Shown here piece by piece: positions 47,621 to 64,000 of a stretch of 64,000 nt of DNA. A program made the translations under genes and the position numbers. The stretch comes from Fibrobacter succinogenes (lineage in GTDB: Bacteria; Fibrobacterota; Fibrobacteria; Fibrobacterales; Fibrobacteraceae). The notes below the pieces were generated by a model. The model was not told where the DNA came from, made no database searches, and worked only from the letters and a program-made list of their open reading frames with translations. The DNA is taken from the NCBI GenBank assembly GCA_902791475.1, contig CADAWC010000023.1:1-64000 (forward strand). The letters are read 5' to 3'. The first letter of the stretch is position 1, and every line of letters starts with the position of its first letter.

Positions 47621-47986
47621 TTATTCCCCGATAATTGTGCTGAAGCCCACAAGGGCGTGTTTGCTCGAATCCATGTATCCCTGAAAATATACGAGATAGC
47701 GTTTTTTTTCTATGGCCTTGCATTGTAACGGGGTCAGCGACAATTTGTATTCGATTTGATATTTGTCTGGTCGCTCGCAAAAGTCGGGATGTTCCTGCAA
47801 AAAACGTACAGTTTTTGCTTTTAGAACATTGTATTCAAAGTAAAGTTCATCATATTCCTTGTCGGTGATAAAGGCCCTGTTCGCGGTGCTGTACAGGTTC
47901 ATGGCCATGGTAAAAAATACGCCTGATATGGCTATGGTGACTACGAGCTCAATTAGCGTAAAACCGCTTTTGTTTAAACGTTTCAT
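47621..47986 (-). CDS. Prepilin-like protein (minor pseudopilin)
   Basis: This 121-residue protein has a class III signal: short basic leader, KSG|FTLIELVVTIAISGVFF, with Gly before the cleavage site, Phe at +1 and Glu at +5, then one hydrophobic helix. The soluble part (about 90 residues) includes NLYSTANRAFITDKEYDELYFEYN and two Cys. It should be cut by a prepilin peptidase and enter a pilus or pseudopilus. It is the last gene of the minus-strand operon and overlaps its upstream neighbour by four bases (ATGA). Whether it belongs to type IV pili or type II secretion cannot be decided. Confidence 0.88.
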   Translation of the reverse strand: MKRLNKSGFTLIELVVTIAISGVFFTMAMNLYSTANRAFITDKEYDELYFEYNVLKAKTVRFLQEHPDFCERPDKYQIEYKLSLTPLQCKAIEKKRYLVYFQGYMDSSKHALVGFSTIIGE

Positions 47987-48333
47987 TTGCTAGCTCCGTA
48001 TTTGCAGTAATGGAGCGTGCGTGTAGAGTCCGTTTTGTGTCGGACTGAAACCGCATTGTAGCATATTTCATCGGCATCTTTTTGAACTTTTACGACTGTT
48101 TCCCAACGGTTCCCGCTTGCATCGGTGTGCGTGACTATGGTGTCGCTTGCTATCGGTGTTGTCAATAAAATAATCTTGCTTAATTCTTGCCCGTAATTAT
48201 TTATCCACGCTTTGTTCGACATCGGGTTCCGGAATAAATAGCCGACAACAAGAACCCCGGTGGATGAGAGTATTGCAAAACTGACAAGCACTTCGACGAG
48301 AGTGCTTCCGATTTTGGAACGCTTAGTTCTCAT
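47983..48333 (-). CDS. Prepilin-like protein (PilV/GspI type)
   Basis: This 116-residue protein has a prepilin signal IG|STLVEVLVSFAILSSTGVLVVGYLF, with Ser at +1 and Glu at +5. The STLVEVLV form is typical of PilV/GspI-class minor subunits. The soluble domain is short (about 75 residues) with two Cys near the end (ICYNAV, LHYCKYG). It overlaps the upstream gene by 11 bases and the downstream one by four, so translation is coupled. It likely forms part of the tip of a pseudopilus. Confidence 0.85.
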   Translation of the reverse strand: MRTKRSKIGSTLVEVLVSFAILSSTGVLVVGYLFRNPMSNKAWINNYGQELSKIILLTTPIASDTIVTHTDASGNRWETVVKVQKDADEICYNAVSVRHKTDSTRTLHYCKYGASK

Positions 48334-49549
48334 AGCTTGCCTCGCCGCCTAGATAAACGATATCCGGAAGGAACGTGTGAACCGTTGTGTCGCCTTTTAT
48401 TTGTCCGTTCCTAAAGAACCCTCTCCATAGGGTTTCGCCTTCATAAAAACCGAGATAGTAGGCTATCATTTGCCCTGTCAGTTTACCGCGAAAATCGACC
48501 ATCCCTCTTGAAATTATGGAACCCTTGATATCAACGTTTTCGGTGATGGTTACGGGGATGCCTTTCGTGGTCTCGTCCCAGTTGTCGCCCATAAACAAGA
48601 CAAGTGTTTTGTCTGCTTTTAAGTTGGAGATTAAGAGGGTGCCGGTATAATCGACTTCACTGGTTTTGCGACCTTGAACAGCCAAGTTGATTGTGTTTTC
48701 TTGCTTGCGCTTTACGGATACTTCCAGTGAATCCTGCGCGAAGAATGTTCCCGAAAGCAATACGCTGTCTTTTATTGAAATTGTTCGTGCAATGATGTTT
48801 GCCTTTGTGAATGTTGCTCTCTCTCGTAAAAAGACTTTGTCTGCTTTAATCTTGCAGCGATTACAGCGACTGTCACCCTGCATCGTGACCACTCGACAGC
48901 TTAGTTCCGTCGGTACCGCGTCTGTTCCGTCAAAAACGCATCGCTCCTTTTGAAACTTTTCTGTGAATTGCTTGCGGCTGATTTCTGGGTAAAATTTCAG
49001 CGTGTCAAAATAGGGTAGGGAATCGCCGACATAGACTGTATCGTAAAATGCATCTTTTTCTGCACGCATCTTGTAATGGCTGCTGTACGAAACGGTACCG
49101 CTCATGAGCGCTGTGCCGCCATCAATACGTGCGTTTCCGACGAGGCTAATGTTGGCCTGCGATGCGAGCAACGTCAATGCAGGGCGCTTTGTCGGGATGA
49201 ATCCAGTGTGTGCCGTAAAATGGCGTGATGAATCGTGATTGAACACGTTAAGCGAGGCGAATGCGCCGTCTTGTATTTGTGAAAGTGAAAAACGGATGTT
49301 GCCGTCTTTGCTTGTATGTTGCAAACTATCGGTGCGCCAGGGCTTGTGCTCGGCTTGCATGCGGAAAAATGCGTAATTGACGCCGCTCTCCAATTCTAGT
49401 GTCGCTTGTGCATCGGTAAATCTGCGGGATGATTCAATCCGTTCGTTTTTGACCATGGTGTAAAACGACGAAACAAGAAACCCGATGATGACAAGAATGG
49501 CTATGGTGAGGGGGAGGGTAAATCCACGCTTGTTGCTTACCGCGCCCAT
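48323..49549 (-). CDS. Large minor pseudopilin (PilX/GspK-like) with beta-helix-like body
   Basis: 408 residues. The N-terminus NKRG|FTLPLTIAILVIIGFLVSSFYTMV is a prepilin signal, but +5 is not Glu, as is usual for GspK/PilX-type tip proteins. The large exported part has repeated short strands (KADKVFLRERATFTKANIIA, ISIKDSVLLSGTFFAQDSLEV) that suggest a beta-helix or bactofilin-like stack, and a CNRCK motif. FYDTVYVGDSLPYFDTLKFYP recalls the DTVY words of other secreted proteins here. The ATG is 4 bases after the ATPase stop. It could be the tip subunit that binds a cargo. The assignment to PilX/GspK is by position and signal only. Confidence 0.75.
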   Translation of the reverse strand: MGAVSNKRGFTLPLTIAILVIIGFLVSSFYTMVKNERIESSRRFTDAQATLELESGVNYAFFRMQAEHKPWRTDSLQHTSKDGNIRFSLSQIQDGAFASLNVFNHDSSRHFTAHTGFIPTKRPALTLLASQANISLVGNARIDGGTALMSGTVSYSSHYKMRAEKDAFYDTVYVGDSLPYFDTLKFYPEISRKQFTEKFQKERCVFDGTDAVPTELSCRVVTMQGDSRCNRCKIKADKVFLRERATFTKANIIARTISIKDSVLLSGTFFAQDSLEVSVKRKQENTINLAVQGRKTSEVDYTGTLLISNLKADKTLVLFMGDNWDETTKGIPVTITENVDIKGSIISRGMVDFRGKLTGQMIAYYLGFYEGETLWRGFFRNGQIKGDTTVHTFLPDIVYLGGEASYEN

Positions 49550-49553
49550 TTTG

Positions 49554-50930
49554 CTAAATCATTGCCTCTGCGGCAATTTCAGATTCTGTGGTGAATCCTA
49601 GCGCAACTTTATCTGCACCATCCATGGCGAGAGTCTTCATGCCCTCTGCGATTGCAGCTCGGCGGAGCTCTGCATTAGACGTTCCCTTATGGACCATCTC
49701 GCGGATGGTTTCGCTCATAGGCATCATCTCGAAAATGCCGACACGTCCCTTGTAACCGCTTCCGCCACAAGTGAGACAGTTTGGATCTTTGCCGCCACAT
49801 TTAGGGCAAACTTTACGGACAAGCCTTTGTGCCATGATAAAGTTCACTGCCGAAGCCACAAGGAACGGCTCGATGCCCATATCGATAAGGCGTACGATTG
49901 CAGACGGAGCGTCATTTGTATGGAGTGTGCTGAAAACCAGGTGGCCCGTGAGAGCCGCGCGTATGGCGAGTTCTGCCGTTTCGCTGTCGCGAATTTCGCC
50001 CACCATGATCACATCCGGGTCTTGGCGGAGTAGGGTACGCAACGCTGCGGCAAAAGTCAAGTCGATTTTAGCGTTTACGGCGGTCTGCGTGATTCCATCT
50101 AGCTTGTATTCAATCGGTTCTTCGATTGTTGAAATGTTCAGCTCAGGGCTACGAATCATCTGCAGTAGCGTGTAGAGCGTAGTTGTCTTACCGCTACCCG
50201 TCGGGCCTGTAATCAAGAACATTCCGTACGGCTTGTGGATTTCTTTTTCACAAAGGTCAATTTGGGCCTGAGTCATGCCCAGAGAATCCAGCTTGTGGAT
50301 AATCGTTCCCTTGTCCAAAAGACGCAACACCATCTTTTGCCCGTAATCCGTTGGCAAAGCCGAAACGCGGATGTCGACTGCCTTGGTGCCATCGTCGAAA
50401 TGAATACGGCCATCTTGAGGTCGGCGCTTTTCGGCAATATCGATGCTCGCCATGATCTTGATTCGCGATGTGATTTCTGATATGGCGCGCAAGGGGAGCT
50501 TTCTTGCAATCTTTAGCACACCATCCTTGCGGAATCGAACGAGGAACGATTTTTCACCTGGCTCAAAGTGAATATCGGAAACGCCCGTGTGCATGGCCTC
50601 CGAAATAATCTCGTTCACCATGCGGATAGCGGGGGAGTTTGCCTTGTTCCCGGCGGCAGTCATGCCGAAAGCAGGAACGGCATGCTCTGCAAATGCGCTA
50701 ATCCACTGGATGACTTTATCTTCATCCGCCTTGACCGGATTCACGTAAACCCCCGCTGCAACCTGAATGTCGTTGATCAAGTCGTAATCATCGATATCGG
50801 CCATAGCGACTGTGAGCCTTTTGCTCTCTTCGCTGTAATCAACCGGAATGACGGAATAACGGACCATTAGCTCTTGCGGTAAAAAACGCAAGGCCGTTTG
50901 CGGTGGCGGATTTTTGAGCTCGAAAGACAT
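49554..50930 (-). CDS. Type II secretion / type IV pilus assembly ATPase (GspE/PilB)
   Basis: 458 residues from ATG 50930, one base after the lipoprotein stop; the frame runs further upstream but that part is inside the lipoprotein gene. It has an N-terminal domain (PQELMVRYSVIPVDYSEESKRLTVAMADIDD), SDIHFEPGEKSFLVRFRKDGVL, Walker A ITGPTGSGKTTTLYTLL, Asp box EEPIEYKLDGITQ, Walker B DPDVIMVGEIRD, His box LVFSTLHTNDAPSAIVRL and the zinc tetracysteine CPKCGGKDPNCLTC. It powers pilus or pseudopilus assembly. It is distinct from PilT at 40.8 kb. The GspF/PilC, major pilin and secretin genes are not in the window. Confidence 0.95.
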   Translation of the reverse strand: MSFELKNPPPQTALRFLPQELMVRYSVIPVDYSEESKRLTVAMADIDDYDLINDIQVAAGVYVNPVKADEDKVIQWISAFAEHAVPAFGMTAAGNKANSPAIRMVNEIISEAMHTGVSDIHFEPGEKSFLVRFRKDGVLKIARKLPLRAISEITSRIKIMASIDIAEKRRPQDGRIHFDDGTKAVDIRVSALPTDYGQKMVLRLLDKGTIIHKLDSLGMTQAQIDLCEKEIHKPYGMFLITGPTGSGKTTTLYTLLQMIRSPELNISTIEEPIEYKLDGITQTAVNAKIDLTFAAALRTLLRQDPDVIMVGEIRDSETAELAIRAALTGHLVFSTLHTNDAPSAIVRLIDMGIEPFLVASAVNFIMAQRLVRKVCPKCGGKDPNCLTCGGSGYKGRVGIFEMMPMSETIREMVHKGTSNAELRRAAIAEGMKTLAMDGADKVALGFTTESEIAAEAMI

Positions 50931-50931
50931 G

Positions 50932-51324
50932 TTACTTCTTTGTCGAATCGACCGAAGCTGTATCTGTCGGGACAAGGAATATGCTGATGGAACGCAAAAT
51001 TACGCTCAAAGCCGTGTCTGGATTGCTGATGACATCGACAGTGTCTTTCGGGAAGTAACCGTCTTTCGTGACAACAATCTGATTCACGTAACTTTCTTCA
51101 GAAGGAAAAATCACCATTCCGCTGGAGTTTGTTGAAAGTGATTGCGCCGACTGGACTTCGTTTGTCAGTTCGACCTTGGCCTTGTCTACAGCCTTGCCCG
51201 TAATCTTGTCTGTGACGATAACTGTGTAGCGGACAGGAATGCGGGCGTCAGAATCGTCATCCTGGAGGCAGGAGGTAAGGAAGAATGAAATAAGTACTAG
51301 TAAAAAGAAAATTTTGGCTTTCAA
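50932..51324 (-). CDS. Lipoprotein with carboxypeptidase-regulatory-like domain
   Basis: 130 residues if translation starts at TTG 51324, which has AGAGG about 7 bases upstream; an ATG at 51360 is possible but lacks a site. The signal is LLKAKIFFLLVLISFFLTSC with a lipobox LTSC. The mature domain (IPVRYTVIVTDKITGKAVDKAKVELTNE, then SSGMVIFPSEESYVNQIVVTKDGYFPKDTVDV) fits the beta-sandwich regulatory domain that often follows secreted enzymes or anchors surface proteins. It is the first gene of the pseudopilin operon. A pilotin-like role is possible but is only inference. Confidence 0.75.
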   Translation of the reverse strand: MKAKIFFLLVLISFFLTSCLQDDDSDARIPVRYTVIVTDKITGKAVDKAKVELTNEVQSAQSLSTNSSGMVIFPSEESYVNQIVVTKDGYFPKDTVDVISNPDTALSVILRSISIFLVPTDTASVDSTKK

Positions 51325-51706
51325 AAGGGAACCTCTATATGGAAAAATAGTAAAAAGCATGGACTTCCATGTAAATGATGTAATTGAACGTTTATATAAA
51401 TAACGGATATTGTCTGTTTTATTGCAAACTTATTTGTTTATTACGTAAATGTAATTTATTCTTTATTTAGATTTTTTTTGTTTGTTCTTGTTTCTAGTTC
51501 GTTCTGAATTATTTGTGCGTACTGATGTAAAATTGTATGTATTGGTATAAAATAATTTTCTTTTGTACTTTACAAATTAAAGAAAAATTCCTATGATTGA
51601 ACGCAATTTGTGTGATTTATTTTTGATAAATTACGCAAAATGTAACATTTTTGACGTAAGTTGTTGATTGTTATAAAGTTAGCATCATTTATGATGATGG
51701 CAATTT
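51325..51706. promoter_or_regulatory. Long AT-rich divergent promoter region
   Basis: About 380 bases between the divergent pseudopilin operon and the OmpH-RHS operon. It is very AT-rich (for example 51400-51660), with many TTTATT and TTTGT runs and almost no coding signal on either strand. Promoters for both operons should lie here. No operator was identified. The size and composition suggest regulation by a nucleoid or curvature effect, which is speculation. Confidence 0.55.
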
Positions 51707-52243
51707 ATGTGGAAGAATTGGAAGAGAATGAAAAATAAACTATTACTGTGCCTTTTGGCAGTGCTTTTTTCGGCTGCAAGCTTTGCTGCGTCCGTCTTTT
51801 TGTTGGTTAATCAAAAATCAGGTCCGTTCTTTATCGAGTCCAGCAAGGCTCTTGAAGCCGATGCGCAAATGGTCGCTATTAACCAGAAAATCGCTTTGCA
51901 GGATGAAATACTGAAAAAACAGGAACAAGTATTCAATGATTCTATAACAAAACTTTTGGATACTCTTTCTGTCAGGCGCGGTGAAGAAGAAAAACTCATT
52001 GACCTTATGAATTTGGAAAGCAACATTTTCCGTCACAAGATGATTGACTCCATTTCAACGGCTTCGCATGATGAAGTGAATAAGGCCCTTGAATCCTTTA
52101 ATGAAAAGGCGAAAGCTTTTAGTCAAAAGAATGGAATCGGCGTCCTGTTTGGATCTGGCAGCAATTTTGTTGTCTATGGAACAGGCACAAAAGCTGATGT
52201 AACTAACAAATTTGTAGAATTTTTAGGGAGAGAACATGAATAA
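51707..52243 (+). CDS. OmpH/Skp-family periplasmic chaperone-like protein (paralogue 1)
   Basis: 178 residues. An N-terminal signal/anchor (LLLCLLAVLFSAASFAASVFLLV) leads to the periplasm. The body is a long coiled coil (about 45-130, rich in Glu, Lys, Gln, Leu), and the end NGIGVLFGSGSNFVVYGTGTKADVTNKFVEFL matches the end of the next gene. OmpH/Skp proteins hold unfolded outer-membrane or secreted proteins in the periplasm. ATG 51707 is used; ATG 51728 is a second choice. It overlaps the next gene by eight bases. It is the first gene of an operon that ends in two giant secreted proteins, which suggests it serves them. Confidence 0.8.
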   Translation: MWKNWKRMKNKLLLCLLAVLFSAASFAASVFLLVNQKSGPFFIESSKALEADAQMVAINQKIALQDEILKKQEQVFNDSITKLLDTLSVRRGEEEKLIDLMNLESNIFRHKMIDSISTASHDEVNKALESFNEKAKAFSQKNGIGVLFGSGSNFVVYGTGTKADVTNKFVEFLGREHE

Positions 52244-52775
52244 ACTGACATCCTTCATTGCCGTATTAGCCCTCGTCTTGTCTATTGCGGGCCTTGCTAC
52301 GGTTGCCTATTTTCATAATACCAAAGTCAACTATGGCTTTGTCAACACTGAAAAACTGTTGAATTCCTTTGTAGAATCGCAAAAAGCCCTTGACGAAATC
52401 CGTGCCGAAGAAGAAAAGTGGGTCTCGGAAAGGAAAGTCATTGAAGACTCCCTGAAGGCTTTTGAAGAACGCACCGCAGCGACCTACCAGAAGCTTTCTG
52501 TTGACGAAAAAAGAAAAGTCAAGAGCGAACACGTCAGCCGCATCGAGGAACTAGGCCGTTTTAACCAGGCCCGTTCTAACGCTATTCAGAACAAGCGCCT
52601 TGAAAAGTTGCAAGGCGTATATCAGAAAATCAATGCCGCGATGGTTGATTTTGCTTCCGAAAATGGCCTTGATGTCGTTTTTGCCTCTAGCAATGGAAGC
52701 ATCGTTTATGGCGATGGCTCTGATGCCGATCTGACGGAAAAGTTTTTGCTTTTCTTGAACAACCGCTTTAAATAA
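52236..52775 (+). CDS. OmpH/Skp-family periplasmic chaperone-like protein (paralogue 2)
   Basis: 179 residues with a signal anchor (LTSFIAVLALVLSIAGLATVAYF), then VNYGFVNTEKLLNSFVESQKALDEI, the typical OmpH opening, a coiled coil with many Glu/Lys, and an end NGLDVVFASSNGSIVYGDGSDADLTEKFLLFLNNRF that matches the family. GGGAGAG precedes the ATG. Two tandem OmpH-like genes directly before giant exported proteins are unusual; normally ompH sits next to bamA and lpxD. I infer dedicated chaperones. Confidence 0.85.
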   Translation: MNKLTSFIAVLALVLSIAGLATVAYFHNTKVNYGFVNTEKLLNSFVESQKALDEIRAEEEKWVSERKVIEDSLKAFEERTAATYQKLSVDEKRKVKSEHVSRIEELGRFNQARSNAIQNKRLEKLQGVYQKINAAMVDFASENGLDVVFASSNGSIVYGDGSDADLTEKFLLFLNNRFK

Positions 52776-52796
52776 CGAATCTGGGGTGGTTGGAAC

Positions 52797-53255
52797 ATGC
52801 GTTGCTTTTTGGCGTTCATTGCCGTTCTGTGTCTCTGGGGCTGCTCTGTTAAAGTCCCCAGAGATGAATTCGTCGCGTATTACGAAAAAAAATGCAAGAC
52901 AGAAATTGAACGTTCTGGAATTCATTTTTTCGCGATGGCCTTGACTCCCGATTACGAACTAGCCAAGTGGGGGACGCCTTTGGATTCCGGGATGAGGGTC
53001 GTTTTCGGCGCTTCTCCGCGCTCCGATCTTTCCTTTGAAACTGCGTTCCTGATAAGTGGACGCGACACCGCCGATGTCATTGTGTCTCGCAAAATGCAGA
53101 CCTTTGAAATTGGTGCTGCCGATATGTTTGTGCTTAGCTTTGTCGACCGCATGGATGGAGCGAAGCTTCGCTTGAAAAACGTCAGCCATGGCATTGGCAG
53201 CGTAGAAATAGAACTTAAAAACTGCAAGAATATTCGACTGGTAGAGAAGAAATGA
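52797..53255 (+). CDS. Small lipoprotein of the RHS operon
   Basis: 152 residues with a lipoprotein signal (RCFLAFIAVLCLWGC, Cys16). The mature part has beta-strand-like segments (MRVVFGASPRSDLSFETAFLISG, TADVIVSRKMQTFEIGAADMFVLSFVD, GSVEIELKNCKNIRLVEKK). I do not recognise the family. It lies 21 bases after the second OmpH-like gene and overlaps the giant RHS-like gene by four bases (ATGA). It may anchor, or assist export of, that protein. Nothing in its sequence proves this; an immunity-type role is equally unproven. Confidence 0.7.
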   Translation: MRCFLAFIAVLCLWGCSVKVPRDEFVAYYEKKCKTEIERSGIHFFAMALTPDYELAKWGTPLDSGMRVVFGASPRSDLSFETAFLISGRDTADVIVSRKMQTFEIGAADMFVLSFVDRMDGAKLRLKNVSHGIGSVEIELKNCKNIRLVEKK

Positions 53256-56200
53256 TGAAAAAAATCAGCTCCATAACACTATTGTTTGGCACTTCGGCCG
53301 TATTTGCTTTGCAAGGTGGCCCTACTCAGCCTGACTATATCGAATTTGAACCTTCAGAGATGAAGGATATGGTCAGCCTTACTTCGGGTAACTTTGCGTA
53401 CTCAATTCCTTTGGGAGATGTTCCGAGTGCGTACGGAAATTATCCTCTTTCTATCTCTTACCATGCTGGTATTTCTCCACAAAAAGAAGCTACATGGGTT
53501 GGTCTTGGTTGGACTTTAAGCCCGGGTAGCATTATTCGTGACCTTCGCGGTGTTCCTGATGATCAGTTTCATGGTGGAACGCTAGGGTTTGTCTACCAGT
53601 ATTCCGCATTGTATGCATGGAGAATCGATACCGGTTATTCGAATGGTTTTTTCTCTGTTGGACTGAGTGCATCTAACTTGGGTGGTGTTGGTGCCTCTGC
53701 CACAGTCGGTATGACTATTGCTGGGGTTGTTGATGTCGGCTTTAAAGTCAGCTCGGATCAGGGGGTTGGTGTTACAGCGGGTATTGGATATGGAGGCGTA
53801 GGCTTGAATGCCAGTGCCATGTATTCACCTAGATCTGGGGACTGGTCTCTTGGAGCAGGTGTTAGTGCGGGTGGAGATAATGTAAAAGCATCCGCTGGTG
53901 TTCAGTATACAACGGGTCAGGGGCTTTCTTATGATGTAGGAATGTCTCTCGGATCCAAAAATATTCCCGCATCGCTGAGTGCATCTGTGGGTAGCGATGG
54001 TACGAGTGTTGGCATTTCTGCAGGCCCGGTAAAGGCTAATTTAAGAAAAGGTGGAACTAGTGTTTCTTTAGGCCCCGTTTCTGTTTCTGTAGCGAATTCT
54101 ACATCGAAAGGTGGCTCTACCTCTTCGTCTGCGGGCTTTGCTGTCGTTGTACCGACGAATGTTGGTGTCTTTAGTCTTGGGTTCAACCAAACTTTGCATG
54201 AATCTCGTATGAGGGCCGCGACATCTGATTACGTATATGGATATATGTATCAGGGTGGTCCTGCTATTATGGCTGATGGCTCTAATAACATTGAAGATAT
54301 TCCTGATGCGCAGACTGGCTCTAATATGACTGGTAAACGTGGCGGATGGGATTGGACATACAAGGGACGCACTATGGAAACCCTTGGTGACGATAAATTA
54401 CAGCCTGCTTATGACATGTTTACTATTGAGTCTGAAGGGGTTGCTGGAACATTTAGAGCTTTCTCAAGAGAAGAACAGCAGATGTTTAGCTTGGTGAGCA
54501 ATAGAGCTACACAAGAAAAAGAAAAATTGGAATATTATCATCCGATTTTGAAACTAGACGATAATAGGTGGCCGAATAAAGAAGATTTTGAATATAACGA
54601 TGATGGTTCGAGAGTTTCTTCGGAATATGCGTACTATAAGGCGAATCCGTCTTTAGATGCTCCTTTTGCTGATTACAAGACTCAATTTAGGAATGAAGGC
54701 AACAGGATGGTTTATCGTGCTAATAAGGATTCTGAAGAACCTTTGACTTCTGGAATAAATTTCTTGTTCTTGGGTGAAGGTGGCTATTATGAAAGCGAAG
54801 ATTTTGGAAAGACAAAAAGTTATGGTGCTGGAAAAGTTACTGGAAAACAATTGAAGAGAGTTCTTTCGGATGCGAATAATCCATCGAAAAAGATAGAGTA
54901 TGCGCTATATGGTTCAAGAAAAATCGAACCTGTTTTTGAAGATGAAAATAACCCTGTTAGCAAGCTTAAGGGCTTTGTAATTACGAATTCTAATGGAACG
55001 AAATATTTCTTTACGCAGCCTGTGAAGTCGTATTTGAAAGTTGATTATACGATAAATCAAGAAAAGGGAACTCCTGTATTCGTTGATAAAAAATTATCAA
55101 AATATGATGGATTCTGGAGTAATTTTGGTGAAGCGGCATTGACTCTAATATGGCCTCCGAAACTCTTGCGTGGAATTAAAAAAGCGATGACTGGAACTTT
55201 GGATGCAAAATGTGGTGAAGATCCTTCTGATGAAAATATCTTGTATTCTTATCAGGTTAATATGAATCCGTATGCAACACAGTGGATGTTGACTGAAATT
55301 CAGGGGCCGGATTATATTCAATTAGATAAGAAAAATAATGATATTGCAAATAATATAGGTTATAATGTAAGATTCCATTATACGAAACCGTCCCTTTATC
55401 AATGGCGTTCTCCGTATGTACAACCAAATACACATTGGAATGATTTGCTCAACTTCAGAATTCCGCATAATGGGATGACTCCCGAAGGATGCGATACAAA
55501 AATGTATCAAGCGGCATTCGGTCTGAAGGAGTATGTCTATTTAGAGAGTATCGAAACGGCGACACATAAGGTTGAATTTGAATTGAACGACCCTGCTAAG
55601 GAAGAACGTGTTGACGGAAAGGGATGGTATTTTAGCAAACGAGATAAGGAAAATCAGAAAACCTTACCAATCTTTACAATTGCTGCTATTGGTCTTAATG
55701 TAAAGTCTGTGAAAAATGAAACAGTGAAAAAAATCATTGTAAGTACAGAAACATCAGATAACTACTCATTAGAAAATTTGAATCAAACAGAATCTATTAA
55801 AAATTGGCATGAAGCTGAATTCGAATATGATGCTTTGTATGTGAATGTGGAAATTCCCGAATTGCTTCAGAAGGAATTGAAGAATAATCCTAATTTGTTC
55901 TTGGAAACAGATTATTTGGCAAAGTTTATTCATGTTAATGATGACAATTTGATTTTGCTCAAAAAAGAAGTGATGTCTTTCGCTGTCGATAAAAATTCAT
56001 CGACTATGATTGAAAAGACAAGTGGTGATGAAACTAAGTATGGACTTTACAAAATTAAATTGAAAAAAGGAAATGGTGAAAAATTCTATTGGCAGGATAA
56101 TTCTACGAACCATTCTCTGTTTAATGAAGCTAAAAATGGTGGTGTTAAACTTGTTTTGAGTCAAGAAGGAAAGAGCTTTGCAAAAAATTCTGGAAAAACA

Positions 56201-59200
56201 TATGATTTGAAACAATGTACCCTTAAGAAAAAAGAACGAACGGATCATGATGGACGTATTCTTTATTCATATTATGCTCCTTGCAATGAAAGAAATGATT
56301 TGACACCTCCGCTTCTTGATTGGTCTGATATTGTTTTCTCAGGAGATTATAGTGACCCGTCTAAGAACCAGATGCGTTATTTGAAGAAAATATCGTACTT
56401 TGATAAGAAAAACAGCGATCCATATCGTGAATATGATTTTGAGTACGATTATTCTTTACATCCGAGGACTTTGAATTCGTATTGTAAGTCGAGATATCCT
56501 GTAGACGCGATGGTTATTCAGGATTCGCCTCTAAATGCAACTATGGATGTCTGTTCGAAAGATACCGAAAGCCGCTATTTTTATGGGAAGTTGACGTTGA
56601 AGTCGATAACTGAGAAAGGATGTCAAAATGGCCGATGCTCAACTTTGCCTCCGTTTAAGTTCGATTATAATGTTGCTTCTCAAACATCGACACGATATAG
56701 CGTGATGAATTCTTGGGCGGAGTATTCTTTAAGAAATACACCTCAGTCACAAAAGAATTGGGATAAAGTAGCGCATTCTTCCTCTTCAGAAGGTTCTTCT
56801 TCAAGCAAAAAGGAGTTCTTCTCGGAAGATTATTATGGAACCTTTACAGATATTGATGCTTCTATAGTAGCTACGAATAATTCTATCGATGAATGGGGAT
56901 TTTGGAATGTTTATGGTAATGAAAATAATCATAAAGTGAATATGTCCTTTGCTGACTATGGTGCCGCAGCATGGAGCTTGAATAAGATTACTGACCCTGC
57001 TGGTGGTGTAATGGAAATAAAGTATGAACGCGATGAATACAAAAATGGTGAAGATCATGCAAATGAACATTTGTATGTTCCTATATTCAGAGTGGGAAGA
57101 TGTGGTGATTTTGTCTATAATAAAAATTATAAGTATGAAGCTCAAGATCAGACATATAATCCAGAATATAATGACAAAACTTGTGCCTTGTTCTTCCCAA
57201 TGTATTGGCATGATCAGTGTTTGGGACCTCGTTCGGCGTTTTGGGATTATGAAGTTCCGAAAGGACATAAGGGAGGCAAATATGATTATATGGATTCGCT
57301 TGGGATTATTAAGAATGGTCAAGTTAATCCAGCCCAGACCCTGTATTTCAAATTAAGTACAGAATTGTCAACGGAAGTTGCTTGTGGCTTTGGTGGTTGG
57401 TTTGATTGCGAAAGGTATAGGCAAGTTGGTTTGTTCGGCAGTGCAACAGTCGCTGCAAAATATGACGGTGTGGCTCATAATATTTGGAATGGGGACCTTC
57501 CTTTTGAATATTTAAAAGAGTATTTCCATGGTTATGTGATTGAAGCGGGACTTGTTTCTAAAGAAGCTCGTATGCTTGTTCTCGACTTGGATTATAAAAC
57601 AATAAAAGCAGGCGTTCAAAAAGCTGGTGACAAGATAGAAGATAATAGAATGTGGGACTACATTTATACAGAAGGTAATATGTGGGCTCAGAGAGGGTAC
57701 AAGAGTATAAAAGGCGGCGATCTTCGCGTGAAGAGCTTGGTCCGTTACGATATAGATAGAACTGCAAAGACCGAATATGAGTATGAACCTGGCGAAATGG
57801 CTCAGCTTCCGGATTCTGCTTACACCACCGTTATGGGAAACGGCTTTAATACGGATCAATATTCCTATGCTTTGCCTGATGTGAATTTAAACCCGAAATC
57901 AAGAATTGTAGGCATTGAAGATAATGATCTTCTTTATGTTCCTGGTTCGAATGTTATGTATCCTAAGGTCACCGTTAAAAACTCTGATGATAAGGAAACT
58001 ACAACGAACGGAAAAACCGTATTCGAATACATCACTCCTGAAAAAGGTATACCTGGGGATTATATAGATTCTGAGACAAAGCAGAAATTACGTCCATTTA
58101 TTCGTGTAAACGCAAATTTAATGACTTGGGGTGGTTACAAAATCAATAAAGAATATAGGCTTAGACCGTCTGTTTTGACATTCAAATTCTTAGGATGTTA
58201 TGGCGGTAACCAGTTCTATCAGATTGGTAATTCTATGGATATTCTTTTGCAACCTGAGCAAACTACTTCATTCTCGTTCTATAACAATGATGTCAAGAAT
58301 GTATGTGCAATTGGTGTGTATTACAAAGAGAAGGATAAACCTGAAGAAGAAATAAGAATTAATACATTGCTAGAAGGCTTTAATGAAGTTGGCCACTTCA
58401 ACGATTTCAATGAAGTCATGCTTACGATTTCACATCTTGAAGGCGAATGGAAAGTACATCCTGCTTGGTATCGTACGCAGGAACAGGGATACTATCCTAT
58501 CCTTTATAAAGAAGTAACTTACGATGATGGTGAGGAAATTGAGCTTGAAAGAGTAGAGGAAAGTCACAAACCTCTAGGTGCGCAGAAGATTAAGCCTCTA
58601 TTTGAAAAATCTATTGTCTATCATGACTTTACGGCGTTCCTTGGCATGAATACCAAGATTTCGACCTATCGTGGAAATGACGACAAGGCTATGCTATTGA
58701 AGGTTGATTCAAATGTTTATTTGACGAAAGTTCCTGATGTACTCCCTGGAATTGCTGAAGGAACAGACGTTGCTCAAAAAGTTGGTAAACAAGTGGAACG
58801 TTGGAATAGTAAACGAGAACTCCAATGTGCTTATGGAGATGATGAAAACGATGATGTATCCGTATGTAGGCGTGGATATTGGTCATTGGGTGCTCATGCT
58901 TCTAAAAAGGCTAATCTTAAGAACCCAAATAAGGAAAGTGAAAACCAAAACATTTATTATTATCAAGACGAAGTCTCGATTGCTTATAAACGTTATCCTG
59001 TATTCCAGATAAAGTCTTTTGTAAGTAATGGCTTTGATAACCAAGAAAAGCAATTTGATAAAGCATCGTCTTCTTCAAGTTCAAACTCTAAATCTTCTTC
59101 TAGTTCCTGCGATGAACGTTGTGAACGGAATAATCAACGTAGACATTGGACCGTGATGGAAAATCACAAGTATGATCCTGTGACTAGTAACCCGACAGCA

Positions 59201-60316
59201 ACTCTTGCAAGAATTCCTGCGGAAAACAATATGGAATTGCATAAGTTGACCGTGAAACTTCCGCATCATGCTGTCTTGAAGAGTGATAATGGCGAGGCTA
59301 CAGATTTGTCAAGTCATCTGTTCAAGAAGAATATGTTGTCTTTGAATTATGCCGATTTTGTTTATTTTGATTCTAAACCGGTAACAAGTTCAACGTCATG
59401 GAATAATCTTGAAAAGGTAGAATACCTGAAGAGCTTCAGTATGAATCCGTTGAATAAGTTTAATGGAAATCTTAAGTATACTGAAAAGGATGGCAAAAAG
59501 ACATCTGTTGAAAGTAGCAAGTATCCTTATATCGAATGGGGCTCATTTACAACCAAAAAAGAACCTAAAGATATTATAGGTAGTGCAAATAATCCTTATG
59601 TCTATGTAGCATCGTATCAAGATGTTGCCTTGGGAACGTCTTCTGAAAAATGGCCTAATAAAGCCGAATTCTCTGGTAATCATATATTGCAAGTCGACAA
59701 CTATTTCAGACCTCTTGAAACAATGGATATTCTGAATAGGCGTCTATCATCACACTATTCTGCTGATGGGCTACGACAGATAGGTCTCTTCTTCCCGACA
59801 GAATTGAGTAAGACTGCGTCTATCATTCCTGTTGGTGATGAAATTAACGAGATTAATTTGAAGAATTCACTGAAGAGTAATTTGAAGGTTGATTTTGCTA
59901 AGGGTGGAATGGTCGCTAAGTCTACTGTTTCTATCAGTTCGTCCACATTCAATTGCTCTGGTGAACTTGTTGCCGAATACCGGATTAAAAAATCTGGGAT
60001 GAATTGGCAGACTGTTCGTGAAAACATTAATAAATTGAATCTTTCGCTTAAGAAGGGTGATGTCTTGAATTATCTGCGAGTTTATCCAGAAAATGCAGAG
60101 GCTAAGACATATCTTTATGATCGTTATGGCAATATGATCCAATTTATTGGTGAAGATAACGTATCGACATTCTATGAATATAACCCGCTGGGCCAGCTCA
60201 TTCAGACACGTAATGATGACGGTGTCAGCTTCAAATCTCATCATAGGGAATTTACGAATGATGATAGGGATGAAATTCCGTGGACAAAAAATAATTCTTC
60301 GTCAAGTGGAAACTAG
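53252..60316 (+). CDS. Giant RHS-like secreted protein (2354 residues)
   Basis: The start is MMKKISSITLLFGTSAVFALQGG, a signal peptide. Residues about 42-107 (VSLTSGNFAYSIPLGDVP, LSISYHAGISPQKEATWVGLGWTLSPGSI, GVPDDQF) match the opening of Bacteroidota-type secreted RHS/YD proteins. A Gly/Ser-rich strand-repeat insert covers about 128-317. A long AT-rich middle follows, with poly-Ser linkers near 1175 and 1940. The only clear YD-type repeat is at the very end (LYDRYGNMIQF, STFYEYNPLGQLIQTRNDDG), then NNSSSSGN. No toxin domain is seen. It is preceded by two OmpH-like genes and followed 15 bases on by another giant secreted protein. Codon use is more AT-rich than in the housekeeping genes. Confidence 0.85.
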   Translation: MMKKISSITLLFGTSAVFALQGGPTQPDYIEFEPSEMKDMVSLTSGNFAYSIPLGDVPSAYGNYPLSISYHAGISPQKEATWVGLGWTLSPGSIIRDLRGVPDDQFHGGTLGFVYQYSALYAWRIDTGYSNGFFSVGLSASNLGGVGASATVGMTIAGVVDVGFKVSSDQGVGVTAGIGYGGVGLNASAMYSPRSGDWSLGAGVSAGGDNVKASAGVQYTTGQGLSYDVGMSLGSKNIPASLSASVGSDGTSVGISAGPVKANLRKGGTSVSLGPVSVSVANSTSKGGSTSSSAGFAVVVPTNVGVFSLGFNQTLHESRMRAATSDYVYGYMYQGGPAIMADGSNNIEDIPDAQTGSNMTGKRGGWDWTYKGRTMETLGDDKLQPAYDMFTIESEGVAGTFRAFSREEQQMFSLVSNRATQEKEKLEYYHPILKLDDNRWPNKEDFEYNDDGSRVSSEYAYYKANPSLDAPFADYKTQFRNEGNRMVYRANKDSEEPLTSGINFLFLGEGGYYESEDFGKTKSYGAGKVTGKQLKRVLSDANNPSKKIEYALYGSRKIEPVFEDENNPVSKLKGFVITNSNGTKYFFTQPVKSYLKVDYTINQEKGTPVFVDKKLSKYDGFWSNFGEAALTLIWPPKLLRGIKKAMTGTLDAKCGEDPSDENILYSYQVNMNPYATQWMLTEIQGPDYIQLDKKNNDIANNIGYNVRFHYTKPSLYQWRSPYVQPNTHWNDLLNFRIPHNGMTPEGCDTKMYQAAFGLKEYVYLESIETATHKVEFELNDPAKEERVDGKGWYFSKRDKENQKTLPIFTIAAIGLNVKSVKNETVKKIIVSTETSDNYSLENLNQTESIKNWHEAEFEYDALYVNVEIPELLQKELKNNPNLFLETDYLAKFIHVNDDNLILLKKEVMSFAVDKNSSTMIEKTSGDETKYGLYKIKLKKGNGEKFYWQDNSTNHSLFNEAKNGGVKLVLSQEGKSFAKNSGKTYDLKQCTLKKKERTDHDGRILYSYYAPCNERNDLTPPLLDWSDIVFSGDYSDPSKNQMRYLKKISYFDKKNSDPYREYDFEYDYSLHPRTLNSYCKSRYPVDAMVIQDSPLNATMDVCSKDTESRYFYGKLTLKSITEKGCQNGRCSTLPPFKFDYNVASQTSTRYSVMNSWAEYSLRNTPQSQKNWDKVAHSSSSEGSSSSKKEFFSEDYYGTFTDIDASIVATNNSIDEWGFWNVYGNENNHKVNMSFADYGAAAWSLNKITDPAGGVMEIKYERDEYKNGEDHANEHLYVPIFRVGRCGDFVYNKNYKYEAQDQTYNPEYNDKTCALFFPMYWHDQCLGPRSAFWDYEVPKGHKGGKYDYMDSLGIIKNGQVNPAQTLYFKLSTELSTEVACGFGGWFDCERYRQVGLFGSATVAAKYDGVAHNIWNGDLPFEYLKEYFHGYVIEAGLVSKEARMLVLDLDYKTIKAGVQKAGDKIEDNRMWDYIYTEGNMWAQRGYKSIKGGDLRVKSLVRYDIDRTAKTEYEYEPGEMAQLPDSAYTTVMGNGFNTDQYSYALPDVNLNPKSRIVGIEDNDLLYVPGSNVMYPKVTVKNSDDKETTTNGKTVFEYITPEKGIPGDYIDSETKQKLRPFIRVNANLMTWGGYKINKEYRLRPSVLTFKFLGCYGGNQFYQIGNSMDILLQPEQTTSFSFYNNDVKNVCAIGVYYKEKDKPEEEIRINTLLEGFNEVGHFNDFNEVMLTISHLEGEWKVHPAWYRTQEQGYYPILYKEVTYDDGEEIELERVEESHKPLGAQKIKPLFEKSIVYHDFTAFLGMNTKISTYRGNDDKAMLLKVDSNVYLTKVPDVLPGIAEGTDVAQKVGKQVERWNSKRELQCAYGDDENDDVSVCRRGYWSLGAHASKKANLKNPNKESENQNIYYYQDEVSIAYKRYPVFQIKSFVSNGFDNQEKQFDKASSSSSSNSKSSSSSCDERCERNNQRRHWTVMENHKYDPVTSNPTATLARIPAENNMELHKLTVKLPHHAVLKSDNGEATDLSSHLFKKNMLSLNYADFVYFDSKPVTSSTSWNNLEKVEYLKSFSMNPLNKFNGNLKYTEKDGKKTSVESSKYPYIEWGSFTTKKEPKDIIGSANNPYVYVASYQDVALGTSSEKWPNKAEFSGNHILQVDNYFRPLETMDILNRRLSSHYSADGLRQIGLFFPTELSKTASIIPVGDEINEINLKNSLKSNLKVDFAKGGMVAKSTVSISSSTFNCSGELVAEYRIKKSGMNWQTVRENINKLNLSLKKGDVLNYLRVYPENAEAKTYLYDRYGNMIQFIGEDNVSTFYEYNPLGQLIQTRNDDGVSFKSHHREFTNDDRDEIPWTKNNSSSSGN

Positions 60317-60317
60317 T

Positions 60318-60323
60318 AGGAGG
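60318..60323 (+). promoter_or_regulatory. Strong ribosome-binding site for the second giant protein
   Basis: AGGAGG lies eight bases before ATG 60332. It decides between ATG 60325 (whose frame closes after about 17 codons) and ATG 60332 (open to the window end). It is one of the few perfect Shine-Dalgarno sites in the region. Confidence 0.85.
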
Positions 60324-60331
60324 AATGAAAA

Positions 60332-63300
60332 ATGAAAAAAATAATTTTGTTGATTCTTTCTGTCTTTTTCTTTGCTGACTTGGCTTTTGCGCAATGTTAT
60401 ACTCCGTCAAATTGCACAGAGCCACAAAGATGCGAGCCTCCGTCGTGTTTGCTGGATTCTGATAATAGAGGCTTTACATGGAATTATGAGATTGTTGAAA
60501 GACTTTCTCCAAACCGCAGGACTGAATTCTGGGTTGGTGAAGAAGTCTCTATTCCTGTGGAATGCTGTGATTGTATCTTGGGTGAATTCTATTCTGCAAC
60601 GGATCCTGTAAATAATCAAACTATAGAATTGCGTGTAGAAAAGAACAGGTGGCTTACTTCAGAAGAAATAGCATCGTATTCCGGTGATGTTAGTGGCCAT
60701 TGGAGAAACAAACAATATTGTTATCATGAACTAGTTGGAAGAGCTTCTCAGCCAGGAAGCTACAAAGGAACGGTTAATTTGGAACAGACTCAACGAAGTC
60801 ATTTCCGTTTTACATACCTTGGTGCAAAAACTCCCAATGAGGATGCCTATCTACGAGAATATGCTTATCCGAAAATTGATTTCTCCTTTGATGTTAAATC
60901 ATTAGATAAAACTATAGGGAATGGACCTAAACCGGATAGTAAGGCTGTAATCGTATCGAGAGATGCTGCTGCAAGTTATTCTGATCAGGCTGAAATTTAT
61001 TCCTATTTGAAAAATAATTCGGGATTTCAGCAGACCCTGGATAATCCGTTTATGGATTATTACATGACATTGCCAAATGATCAGCAAGTCGGCGTCTTCA
61101 GTATATGGAAACTACCTGAAAATTCTTGCATTCAGGTTATTGAATGTGATAATAACAACTATATATTTAGACATAAATACGCTGGAATGCAAACACTTAA
61201 CGCTGGAGCCTCTTTGGGAGAATTTCAGTTGGCTCTTTATGATGCTCCAAGTACACGTGGTAACTTAGACTGGTTTGACCATATGGCTGAGAAACAGTCT
61301 GATGTTAATACAAATGAAGACTTTTCCTATTTATATCTTGCAGAAAATTATGATCATGCAGCAGCACGATATGATCACTATAACTACAAGATGGCCTCTT
61401 TTGACAAAAATGGAACGCTTTTATATGGTAGTTTCCCTAGTTGGCTTAATTCAAGTTGCCATATAATTCAGCCCAAAGAACGTGTCCAGAATGAAACGAG
61501 TCGCATTCAGTATAGGACAACTTCTTCCGAAAATTTACGCTTGTGTACTGATAACGATGTGTTTATACCTTCTATTTACCGTTCTTATAATCTTGATGTT
61601 CAATTCCGTGATTCTGAATTAGAGCAAAATCATACCGGATATTTTGATTTTCGTATAGTAAACACGGGCAACCAAGACTTGAATCTTAACGGTTTCCAGA
61701 TTCGCTTTTTCTATGGGGAAACTTCTTATGATCCTTCTAGAGTGAAGTATTATGTTCGTGGGGGGAATCCTGCTGGACCGTGGAGCGTTGAACGTTGCCG
61801 CGATGATATGTATGTTTTAAAGATTAATCTAACATCCTATGCCCAAGTAAAGGCTGGCGGATTCTATCCTGGAGAGAACCAGTGGAGAATGCTTTTTGAA
61901 GCAGCTGTTGATGATTGGAGTAGCGGAATAAATCTTGAAAAACAGAAAATGTTCAGTTGGAAAAATACGTCTGAATTTATTTCTAACGAGAATATCGGTC
62001 TGTATGATCCCAACGGCGTGCAGATATTCGGCCGTAAAGATTTACCTGTCTGTGATGGAGGCCATGGGGGTAATGGCGGTGACAATGGTGGCGGCAACGG
62101 CGGAGATAATGGCGGAGAAGTTATTACAAATAGTAATTTGAAGGTGCTGTTCTTTGATGCTCAGGCAACTAACGATTACTATGGAGATTTCCAATTTAAA
62201 GTGGCTAATGTTGGTACTGCTGATGCTCAGATTGGTGAGTACGAATTGCGTTTCTACTATAGTGACAATAAAAATTTGGAAAACGCTAGTATTGCTTTTG
62301 CACCAAACTACGTAGACAATGGTTCTTTATCCTTCGAACAATGTGCCGATAATAAGTATATAATGCGATTAAAATTAAATTCAGGTGCATCTGTTAAGGC
62401 TGGAGGAAAATATCCTGAAAATGATCCTCTCAAAGCTGGTGTCAGCAGCAAAAACGGGCAGATTAACAAAAAAAGTATGGATAGCTGGAATAATGCTTCT
62501 GTATTGACGGATAACCCCAAAATGAGTCTTTATGATGCAAGTGGGCGCCTTGTCTATGGTGAACCTACTCCATCATGTGGCCAATCCGTGCATGACAGTG
62601 AGGATGATGAGAAAAAGAAGCAAGAATATAAATACAGATATTTGACAATCCAATTCCAGGATACGGATAAAAATAAAAAGACCCAGAATGGTGATTTTAA
62701 GTTCCAAATAAAGAACTCCGGTGAAGATGATTTCCCCATCGGGAATTATGAAATGCGTTTTTTCTTTGAAAGTAAAAAAGGCAAGTTTGATGCATCGGAT
62801 ATAGGATTTATTCCTGGAAATCTTGCTAATTCTCAAGTTACCAAAGAATGGTGCGGTGATGGAAGATATTTCATGAAGATAAAGATGGCTTCAGATGCTG
62901 TTGTTAAAGCAGATAATCATTTCCCTGAATATTATCCAGTAACTGTTTCTGTAAGACGTCTTTCAAAAGAAAATGAGGGCATTTATTTAGATTATTATAA
63001 GAACGATTTGTTTAGTTGGAACAGCTACATCGAAATGACTGATAATAAGAAGATGGGCTTGTTCGATGCAACAGGGAACCTTGTATGGGGATATCCCGGC
63101 TATAAATGCGAAAATCCGGTTACGGTAACACCGGGATCAAAGATTGATAAATCTCGTTTCCTTGTTGAAGAAACGGAGAAACTTTTACCCTTTAAGTTCT
63201 ATGATGAAGATAAGGGAAAAAATGTTACTTTAGAAAACGGTATAAATGAAGTATCGTTAAAAGTGAAAAATGTGAGTGAACTTGACGAGGCTGGTCCTGT

Positions 63301-64000
63301 TTATGTAGACTATTATATTACCCATCCGGTTGGACAAAATCCATTATTCTGTTATAGCAGGGGTACTACTTGTTTTGCTTCTTCTTCTTCGAGTAATGTT
63401 GAATTCTCGGTCCCTGATGTAGTTTTTGACTTAAGAAGCGATTTATCGGTTAAGCGCATGTCTACAGGTAACAAACATGTCTACAGGTTTACCTTAAAGA
63501 ATGGCTTGAAGAAAAAAAGTGAGGTTGAATTTAAATTCTCGTTACGTGATGAATGTGCTGATTGCTTGATTGAAGATCCCGAGCCTGGTCCGTATTTTAT
63601 GATAAAGCCAGGTCAGATGATTTGTGAGGCCATTGAAAGAGAAGGGCTTGAACCGTTTGATGGTTGCGAGACAGAGTGGGATCCAACGAAGTATTTTATA
63701 TGGAAAATTAAAGACGATTGGTCTGCTGAATCTGGTTTGACTTCGGAATATGAGAAGACGGATCGAGTTGTTATTTATTCAAAGGATGAAGTTGTTCTTT
63801 ATGGCCATGGCGATGATGGAGATGCAAAGTTTAAAAACTCAAATGGATATATTCCTATTCCTGGTATTACGGTACAGGAACAGTTCCCGAATCGTACAGA
63901 TGCTGTAGCCTATTCGGGCGGCCAGTTGTTGCTTAATGGAGATTTCGAAGATCCTTCGCTGATTGGCTGGGATTTGGATGATGGTGTGGCCTCTAGCATT
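60332..64000 (+). CDS. Giant secreted protein with three CBM3-like modules (3' end missing)
   Basis: The frame is open from ATG 60332 to the window end (1223 codons, no stop). The signal peptide is MKKIILLILSVFFFADLAFAQ. Residues 22-415 are unknown, with many Cys early (CYTPSNCTEPQRCEPPSC). Three modules resemble cellulose-binding CBM3: about 419-567 (YFDFRIVNTGNQDLNLNGF ... DDWSSGINLEKQKMFSWKN ... LYDPNGVQIFG), 602-745 and 768-925 (NGDFKFQIKNSG ... GLFDATGNLVWGYPG). A Gly/Asn-rich linker lies at 576-597. Beyond 930 there is beta-rich sequence, a possible degenerate copy near 950, and LLLNGDFEDPSLIGW at about 1197, the start of a CBM4/9-like domain. It is in one operon with the RHS-like gene. 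A cellulose- or glycan-binding surface role is inferred. Confidence 0.88.
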   Translation, partial: MKKIILLILSVFFFADLAFAQCYTPSNCTEPQRCEPPSCLLDSDNRGFTWNYEIVERLSPNRRTEFWVGEEVSIPVECCDCILGEFYSATDPVNNQTIELRVEKNRWLTSEEIASYSGDVSGHWRNKQYCYHELVGRASQPGSYKGTVNLEQTQRSHFRFTYLGAKTPNEDAYLREYAYPKIDFSFDVKSLDKTIGNGPKPDSKAVIVSRDAAASYSDQAEIYSYLKNNSGFQQTLDNPFMDYYMTLPNDQQVGVFSIWKLPENSCIQVIECDNNNYIFRHKYAGMQTLNAGASLGEFQLALYDAPSTRGNLDWFDHMAEKQSDVNTNEDFSYLYLAENYDHAAARYDHYNYKMASFDKNGTLLYGSFPSWLNSSCHIIQPKERVQNETSRIQYRTTSSENLRLCTDNDVFIPSIYRSYNLDVQFRDSELEQNHTGYFDFRIVNTGNQDLNLNGFQIRFFYGETSYDPSRVKYYVRGGNPAGPWSVERCRDDMYVLKINLTSYAQVKAGGFYPGENQWRMLFEAAVDDWSSGINLEKQKMFSWKNTSEFISNENIGLYDPNGVQIFGRKDLPVCDGGHGGNGGDNGGGNGGDNGGEVITNSNLKVLFFDAQATNDYYGDFQFKVANVGTADAQIGEYELRFYYSDNKNLENASIAFAPNYVDNGSLSFEQCADNKYIMRLKLNSGASVKAGGKYPENDPLKAGVSSKNGQINKKSMDSWNNASVLTDNPKMSLYDASGRLVYGEPTPSCGQSVHDSEDDEKKKQEYKYRYLTIQFQDTDKNKKTQNGDFKFQIKNSGEDDFPIGNYEMRFFFESKKGKFDASDIGFIPGNLANSQVTKEWCGDGRYFMKIKMASDAVVKADNHFPEYYPVTVSVRRLSKENEGIYLDYYKNDLFSWNSYIEMTDNKKMGLFDATGNLVWGYPGYKCENPVTVTPGSKIDKSRFLVEETEKLLPFKFYDEDKGKNVTLENGINEVSLKVKNVSELDEAGPVYVDYYITHPVGQNPLFCYSRGTTCFASSSSSNVEFSVPDVVFDLRSDLSVKRMSTGNKHVYRFTLKNGLKKKSEVEFKFSLRDECADCLIEDPEPGPYFMIKPGQMICEAIEREGLEPFDGCETEWDPTKYFIWKIKDDWSAESGLTSEYEKTDRVVIYSKDEVVLYGHGDDGDAKFKNSNGYIPIPGITVQEQFPNRTDAVAYSGGQLLLNGDFEDPSLIGWDLDDGVASSI

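What the first reader, a model, noticed from the sequence alone, without database searches (positions are those of the whole stretch)
51707..64000. Operon of two OmpH/Skp-like chaperones, a lipoprotein and two giant secreted proteins
Five genes on one strand are joined by overlaps or short gaps (-8, +21, -4, +15 bases). Two tandem OmpH-like proteins lead, then a lipoprotein, a 2354-residue RHS-like protein and a protein of more than 1223 residues with CBM3-like modules. OmpH/Skp genes normally sit with bamA/lpxD. Here they look dedicated to the export of giant surface proteins. I know of no described system with this exact order.
Basis: partly seen in the sequence, partly recalled or inferred. 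Interest (0 to 1): 0.8.

Follow-up and report, generated by a model that had tools for sequence, protein, structure and literature searches.

The report
RHS toxin operon with dedicated chaperones
A bacterial gene cluster that makes a swappable-tip toxin from two giant secreted proteins carries its own pair of OmpH/Skp-type periplasmic chaperones and a small lipoprotein; the same set recurs in two bacterial phyla, giving a concrete handle on how such giant toxins get out of the cell.

Summary
The last gene ends at contig position 67,705 (2,457 aa): CBM3-like modules, YD repeats, an RHS core and a C-terminal DUF4329 (Tox-JAB-2) domain. An overlapping lipoprotein gene, the likely immunity gene, follows. 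So this is an RHS polymorphic-toxin operon, not two generic surface proteins.

The OmpH link is real. In 168 Fibrobacterota genomes, all 17 loci with this giant-A family have a distinct OmpH gene just upstream (17/17; seven loci were not used to build the profiles). The usual single OmpH sits next to bamA, wherever its neighbours were read. Other two-protein RHS operons inspected in the genus lack OmpH. Eight of 12 Bacteroidota plasmid records with a giant-A relative have the same OmpH-lipoprotein-giant order.

These OmpHs mostly appear membrane-tethered (heuristic). Toxin tips swap while the rest is conserved, and 12 of 13 neighbouring small genes look exported or membrane-bound, so the toxins probably act in the envelope.

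Best mechanism: a tethered Skp-type holdase that keeps the giants unfolded or assembles them before outer-membrane transfer. The holdase role and the exit route are inferred. No published description was found in the open-access library searched.

The parts
51361..51706 (.). AT-rich intergenic region between the divergent gene at 50932-51360 (-) and the operon; probable promoter region
   Evidence: sequence read; promoter-like matches here are no more than chance
51707..52243 (+). OmpH-A, divergent OmpH/Skp-like protein (178 aa) with an N-terminal hydrophobic anchor; duplicate seen in 8 Fibrobacteraceae loci
   Evidence: PF03938 25.8 bits, below cut-off; clade 100/100 in tree
52236..52775 (+). 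OmpH-B, accessory OmpH/Skp-like protein (179 aa), N-terminal transmembrane anchor by heuristic
   Evidence: PF03938 74.1 bits; 17/17 linkage to giant A; N-terminus compared with canonical OmpH
52797..53255 (+). small lipoprotein (152 aa); family with a lipobox Cys conserved in all 23 homologues aligned from Fibrobacterota and Bacteroidota; no Pfam family
53252..60316 (+). giant A (2354 aa): signal peptide, conserved N-terminal domain (LQGGPxxPDYxxFEP...WVGLGW), C-terminus ending in YD/RHS repeats
60332..64000 (+). giant B, in-window part (continues to contig position 67705, L005:2333-9706; 2457 aa): signal peptide, CBM3-like modules, YD repeats, RHS core, C-terminal DUF4329/Tox-JAB-2 tip. Followed beyond the window by a probable immunity lipoprotein at 67662-68492

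Best explanation
The operon encodes a polymorphic RHS toxin built from two giant Sec-exported proteins, with its own periplasmic handling module. Giant A (N-terminal shell plus first YD repeats) and giant B (adhesin-like modules, remaining YD repeats, RHS core, swappable C-terminal toxin) together would form the RHS shell around the toxin tip. The accessory OmpH proteins form membrane-tethered Skp-like trimers that catch the giants as they leave Sec, keep them from folding or aggregating and/or assemble A with B, before transfer to the cell surface. The small lipoprotein helps at the outer membrane. The tip (here a JAB-type putative peptidase) acts in the envelope of neighbouring bacteria; the exported protein from the next gene protects the producer. 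Shown here: gene order, cross-phylum conservation, one-to-one linkage, tip swapping. Inferred: tethering (heuristic), holdase role, shell formation, outer-membrane route, target.
For: 17/17 giant-A loci (>150 bits; next best 71.7) have an accessory OmpH (>130 bits) just upstream; seven of these loci were outside the profiles; genome-level Fisher p 1.7e-20. The same order OmpH-lipoprotein-giant A is seen in 8 of 12 Bacteroidota plasmid records. OmpH and giant-A distances co-vary (Mantel r 0.89). Canonical OmpH sits by the Omp85/POTRA gene and is a separate clade, 100/100. Accessory N-termini have longer uncharged hydrophobic runs than canonical ones (p 3e-6). Giant B of G015 vs G016 is largely 95-100% identical (locally 71-85%) up to the RHS core, then about 20%; A about 97% throughout. 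Tips: DUF4329 x3, Tlde1; next gene exported or membrane in 12/13. Best PDB match of the OmpH-B profile is Skp in the F. johnsoniae T9SS translocon (8gl8_G, E 1.2e-9); that protein is needed for SprB export (PMC10994853).
Against: No binding or secretion data. RHS loci of other clades in the same genus do without accessory OmpH, as do two Bacteroidota loci with the lipoprotein, so the chaperone is not needed for RHS toxins in general. Neither giant has a recognised T9SS C-terminal signal. Four Fibrobacterota loci lack the lipoprotein between OmpH and giant A. Tethering rests on a heuristic, not a trained signal-peptide predictor; for some members a cleavage site cannot be excluded.
Confidence: 0.6

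Rival explanations
1. The accessory OmpH trimer is not a holdase but a structural docking adaptor: like SkpA in the F. johnsoniae T9SS extended translocon, it binds a translocon part and brings the giants to an outer-membrane exit such as SprA.
For: SprA_N found in 160/168 Fibrobacterota genomes including this one; SkpA is a structural T9SS part needed for export of the adhesin SprB (PMC10994853); the 8gl8 Skp is the best PDB match of the OmpH-B profile; a T9SS is proposed in F. succinogenes (PMC6851124).
Against: Neither giant has a T9SS C-terminal domain by Pfam or NCBIfam; B ends in the toxin; the SkpA-SprA contact residues were not tested here; nearly all Fibrobacterota have SprA, so SprA does not track the operon.
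Confidence: 0.2
2. The OmpH pair and lipoprotein serve self-protection or quality control: they hold or clear the toxin in the periplasm so it cannot harm the producer, rather than help its export.
For: Tips seem to act in the envelope (Tlde1, DUF4329) and candidate immunity proteins are exported, so a periplasmic guard would be useful.
Against: The OmpH/lipoprotein pair follows the giant-A type, not the tip: tips differ between loci with the same OmpH, and each tip has its own neighbour gene.
Confidence: 0.1
3. The operon is a Tc-type (ABC) toxin whose A component is encoded elsewhere; giants A and B equal TcB and TcC.
For: Split SpvB/YD plus RHS layout resembles TcB-TcC; this genome has a TcA-like gene on another contig (TcA_TcB_BD E 8.3e-49); one homologue has a weak SpvB hit.
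Against: TcA occurs in only 4 of the 15 genomes with the operon (Fisher p 0.15); no TcB Pfam domain in giant A; both giants have signal peptides and giant B carries adhesin-like modules.
Confidence: 0.05
4. OmpH genes are there by chance or as a general envelope-stress gene that hitchhikes.
For: Gene neighbourhoods are often shared among close relatives.
Against: 17/17 linkage over many families of the phylum plus a second phylum, including three different loci in one genome that keep matching pairs.
Confidence: 0.02

Closest known systems
RHS/YD polymorphic toxin systems with signal peptide and SpvB-type N-terminus ('TcdB/TcaC export pathway', Zhang et al. 2012, PMC3482391)
   Same: Sec-exported giant RHS proteins, RHS core, swappable C-terminal toxin (including Tox-JAB-2 = DUF4329), immunity gene, tandem orphan cassettes; fibrobacteres listed for this pathway
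   Different: That survey mentions no OmpH or chaperone; here the N-terminal half is a separate giant and an OmpH plus lipoprotein module is part of the operon
SkpA of the Bacteroidota T9SS extended translocon (Lauber et al. 2024, PMC10994853)
   Same: A Skp/OmpH family protein serving a secretion process, needed for the adhesin SprB
   Different: SkpA lies in an operon with a second Skp, conserved even in Bacteroidota without a T9SS, and serves the general T9SS; the window's OmpHs lie in a toxin operon, look membrane-anchored and have a single toxin clade as partner
Canonical OmpH/Skp next to bamA
   Same: OmpH domain (PF03938)
   Different: Separate clade, typical signal peptide, unlinked locus
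Tc (ABC) toxins
   Same: Two-part SpvB/RHS shell architecture in outline
   Different: No linked or co-occurring TcA, no TcB Pfam domains, added OmpH and lipoprotein

Membership tests
OmpH/Skp family | PF03938 match above curated cut-off | tested here: met
   OmpH-B 74.1 bits vs 32.4; OmpH-A only 25.8 bits, so inconclusive for that copy alone
Canonical (housekeeping) OmpH | gene adjacent to bamA | tested here: not met
   window copies sit upstream of the lipoprotein and giant A; the canonical copy is on contig C52 next to Omp85/POTRA
RHS polymorphic toxin system | RHS-associated core followed by a short C-terminal toxin domain | tested here: met
   TIGR03696 44.7 bits vs 32.5; DUF4329 47.6 bits vs 28.6
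RHS polymorphic toxin system | tip varies sharply while the rest is conserved | tested here: met
   G015 vs G016 giant B largely 95-100% identity, then about 20% after the core
RHS polymorphic toxin system | immunity gene directly downstream; orphan tip cassettes | tested here: met
   small gene follows each of 13 cores; tandem cassettes in G015, G016 and G031. Immunity function itself not tested
TcdB/TcaC (SpvB) export class | signal peptide plus SpvB domain and integrin-like beta-propeller | tested here: inconclusive
   signal peptide present by eye; SpvB below cut-off in one homologue (16.3 vs 22 bits), none in the window's protein
Tc (ABC) toxin | TcA component linked or co-occurring | tested here: not met
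   TcA in 4/15 operon genomes, unlinked
T9SS substrate | C-terminal sorting domain (TIGR04183/TIGR04131) | tested here: not met
   no match in either giant; T9SS itself present (SprA)
T6SS-delivered Rhs | T6SS sheath gene (VipB/TssC) in the genome | tested here: not met
   no VipB match in the window's genome
Skp-type holdase | trimer that binds unfolded client | not testable with these tools
   needs protein work

The most novel reading that the evidence does not exclude
The accessory OmpH trimer and the lipoprotein are the core of a separate, substrate-specific envelope export pathway for signal-peptide RHS toxins, shared by Fibrobacterota and Bacteroidota, in which a membrane-tethered Skp hands two giant half-shells to an outer-membrane exit (the T9SS translocon or an unknown one) without a classical T9SS signal.
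Probability: 0.25. Interest if true: 0.82.

Novelty: new variant of a known kind. Interest (0 to 1): 0.64.

Why it matters
How signal-peptide RHS/SpvB-type toxins cross the envelope is, to my knowledge, open (the 2012 survey names an export pathway but no chaperone). A dedicated, conserved OmpH plus lipoprotein pair gives two specific genes to delete and pull down, and adds to recent evidence that Skp-family proteins do more than outer-membrane protein biogenesis. It also offers a genetic marker for finding such toxin operons in two phyla.

Tried and rejected
(1) Chance or hitchhiking of OmpH: rejected. (2) OmpH as a general need of RHS proteins: rejected; other two-protein RHS loci in the genus lack it. 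(3) Tc holotoxin: rejected as obligate partner. (4) T6SS delivery: no sheath gene in the genome. (5) Phage or defence link: no giant-A relatives in viral contigs or phage records; no PADLOC hits. (6) Solved-structure matches for giant A: none; giant B only weak cellulose-binding matches. (7) Lipoprotein fold: single-sequence AlphaFold model is unusable (mean pLDDT 40.5) and profile searches gave nothing. (8) The first genome-contig scan used a single divergent protein and gave only one weak, unrelated match. (9) Monophyly of accessory OmpH against Bacteroides standalone OmpH: neither shown nor rejected (p-AU 0.317).

Full report
OBSERVATION. The contig ends at 68,789. Beyond the window, the last gene ends at 67,705 (2457 aa) and is overlapped by a lipoprotein gene at 67,662-68,492. 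Pfam and NCBIfam: OmpH for genes 1 (weak) and 2 (clear); nothing for the small lipoprotein; only a marginal RHS repeat in giant A; CBM_3, YD repeats, RHS-associated core and DUF4329 in giant B. Zhang et al. 2012 call DUF4329 Tox-JAB-2 (PMC3482391). The window's tip carries the HSH and S..D pattern given there for that family (by eye).

WHAT IT IS. Three signs mark an RHS polymorphic-toxin operon. First, the RHS core is followed by a 168-aa tip. Second, two closely related strains (G015, G016) have giant B largely 95-100% identical (a few stretches 71-85%) up to the core and about 20% after it, while giant A is about 97% identical throughout. Third, tandem orphan core-plus-tip cassettes, each followed by a small gene, lie downstream in G015, G016 and G031. 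Of 10 tips scanned, three are DUF4329 and one is Tlde1, a peptidoglycan-acting domain (the activity of Tlde1 is from my own knowledge). In 12 of 13 cases the gene after the tip has a signal peptide, lipobox or membrane anchor by eye, which points to action in the envelope. The immunity role itself is inferred.

IS THE OMPH LINK REAL? The window's genome has a third OmpH on contig C52, next to a POTRA/Omp85 (bamA) gene; the F. succinogenes genes FSU_2655 and FSU_2654 show the same pairing (PMC6851124). A profile of the giant-A N-terminus over 168 Fibrobacterota genomes gave 17 strong loci in 15 genomes, with a wide gap to the next match. A profile of accessory OmpH gave 17 strong loci at the same places, just upstream of giant A, plus one weaker orphan in G051. 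Seven of the 17 loci were not in the profiles. By contrast, RHS cores occur in 31 of 61 relatives, and the other two-protein RHS operons inspected (for example G004, G024, G033) have no OmpH upstream. The link therefore belongs to one giant-A clade. Paralogous loci within one genome (G048) keep matching pairs, and OmpH and giant-A distances correlate (Mantel r 0.89).

SECOND PHYLUM. Twelve Bacteroidota plasmid records hold a giant-A relative. In eight, an OmpH gene and a lipoprotein gene of about 165-215 aa precede giant A in the window's order. Two have the lipoprotein only. One (Hymenobacter BRD67) is a broken locus with OmpH about 4 kb downstream, and one (Hymenobacter HDW8) belongs to another clade without OmpH. 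The lipoprotein is one family in both phyla, with the lipobox cysteine conserved in all 23 sequences aligned. It is missing from the usual place in G015, G016, G116 and G095.

ACCESSORY OMPH. In a tree with 30 canonical Fibrobacterota OmpHs, all operon-linked OmpHs fall on the other side of a 100/100 branch. When two Bacteroides standalone lipoprotein OmpHs are added, a single accessory clade is neither shown nor rejected, so origin from a Bacteroidota paralogue is possible. N-termini differ: canonical copies have short signal peptides ending in motifs such as SFA/E, whereas Fibrobacterota accessory copies have longer uncharged hydrophobic runs (p 3e-6), and four Bacteroidota copies have a clear lipobox. 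This is a heuristic; cleavage cannot be excluded for some members. Membrane tethering is not exclusive to the operon, since the Bacteroides standalone OmpHs also look lipidated.

MECHANISM. Best reading: the tethered Skp-like proteins receive the giants at the Sec exit, keep them unfolded or help A and B join, and pass them on; the lipoprotein acts nearer the outer membrane. Giant A ends in YD repeats and B carries the rest plus the core, so the two could complete one RHS shell; this is inferred. The exit route is unknown. SprA is in nearly all genomes of the phylum and a Skp protein is a structural part of the F. johnsoniae translocon (PMC10994853), but neither giant has a T9SS sorting domain. 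Tc-type delivery is unlikely: TcA is in only 4 of the 15 genomes. T6SS sheath genes were not found in this genome.

NOVELTY. Searches of the open-access literature for OmpH or Skp together with RHS or polymorphic toxins gave no description. That library lacks most subscription papers, so absence there is weak evidence. Polymorphic RHS toxins and Skp are both well known; the dedicated OmpH plus lipoprotein module is the new part. I rate it a new variant of a known kind.

Noticed in passing
G000 contig C69 (L155:3715-12642, - strand): A 2975-aa open frame with a TcA_TcB-binding domain (E 8.3e-49). TcA-like genes occur in 24 of 168 Fibrobacterota genomes, not tied to this operon.
   Followed up: partly
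L043-L048 (G004, G009, G024, G033, G025): A second clade of two-giant RHS operons in the same genus, without any OmpH gene, often with exported small genes after the tip.
   Followed up: partly
L113 (G051:C279): An orphan OmpH of the accessory type beside two similar secreted proteins of about 940-1000 aa, suggesting the accessory family may serve other large secreted proteins.
   Followed up: partly
L036, L038, L098, L118, L120 upstream of OmpH: Outside the genus, adhesin-like genes (LamG, DUF2341, InlB-type repeats, phage-tail-fibre-like) precede the OmpH gene.
   Followed up: partly
window 47621-51360, - strand: A divergent cluster with a GspE/PilB-like ATPase and prepilin-like proteins lies next to the operon (by eye).
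   Followed up: no
L034:2170-9944 (G031), L095 (G115): Giant A is interrupted in these two genomes (split frame; one internal TAA), from decay or draft error; left as found.
   Followed up: no
L156, L157: Two plasmid records of Bacteroides/Phocaeicola look like chromosome pieces; each carries a standalone lipoprotein-type OmpH.
   Followed up: partly
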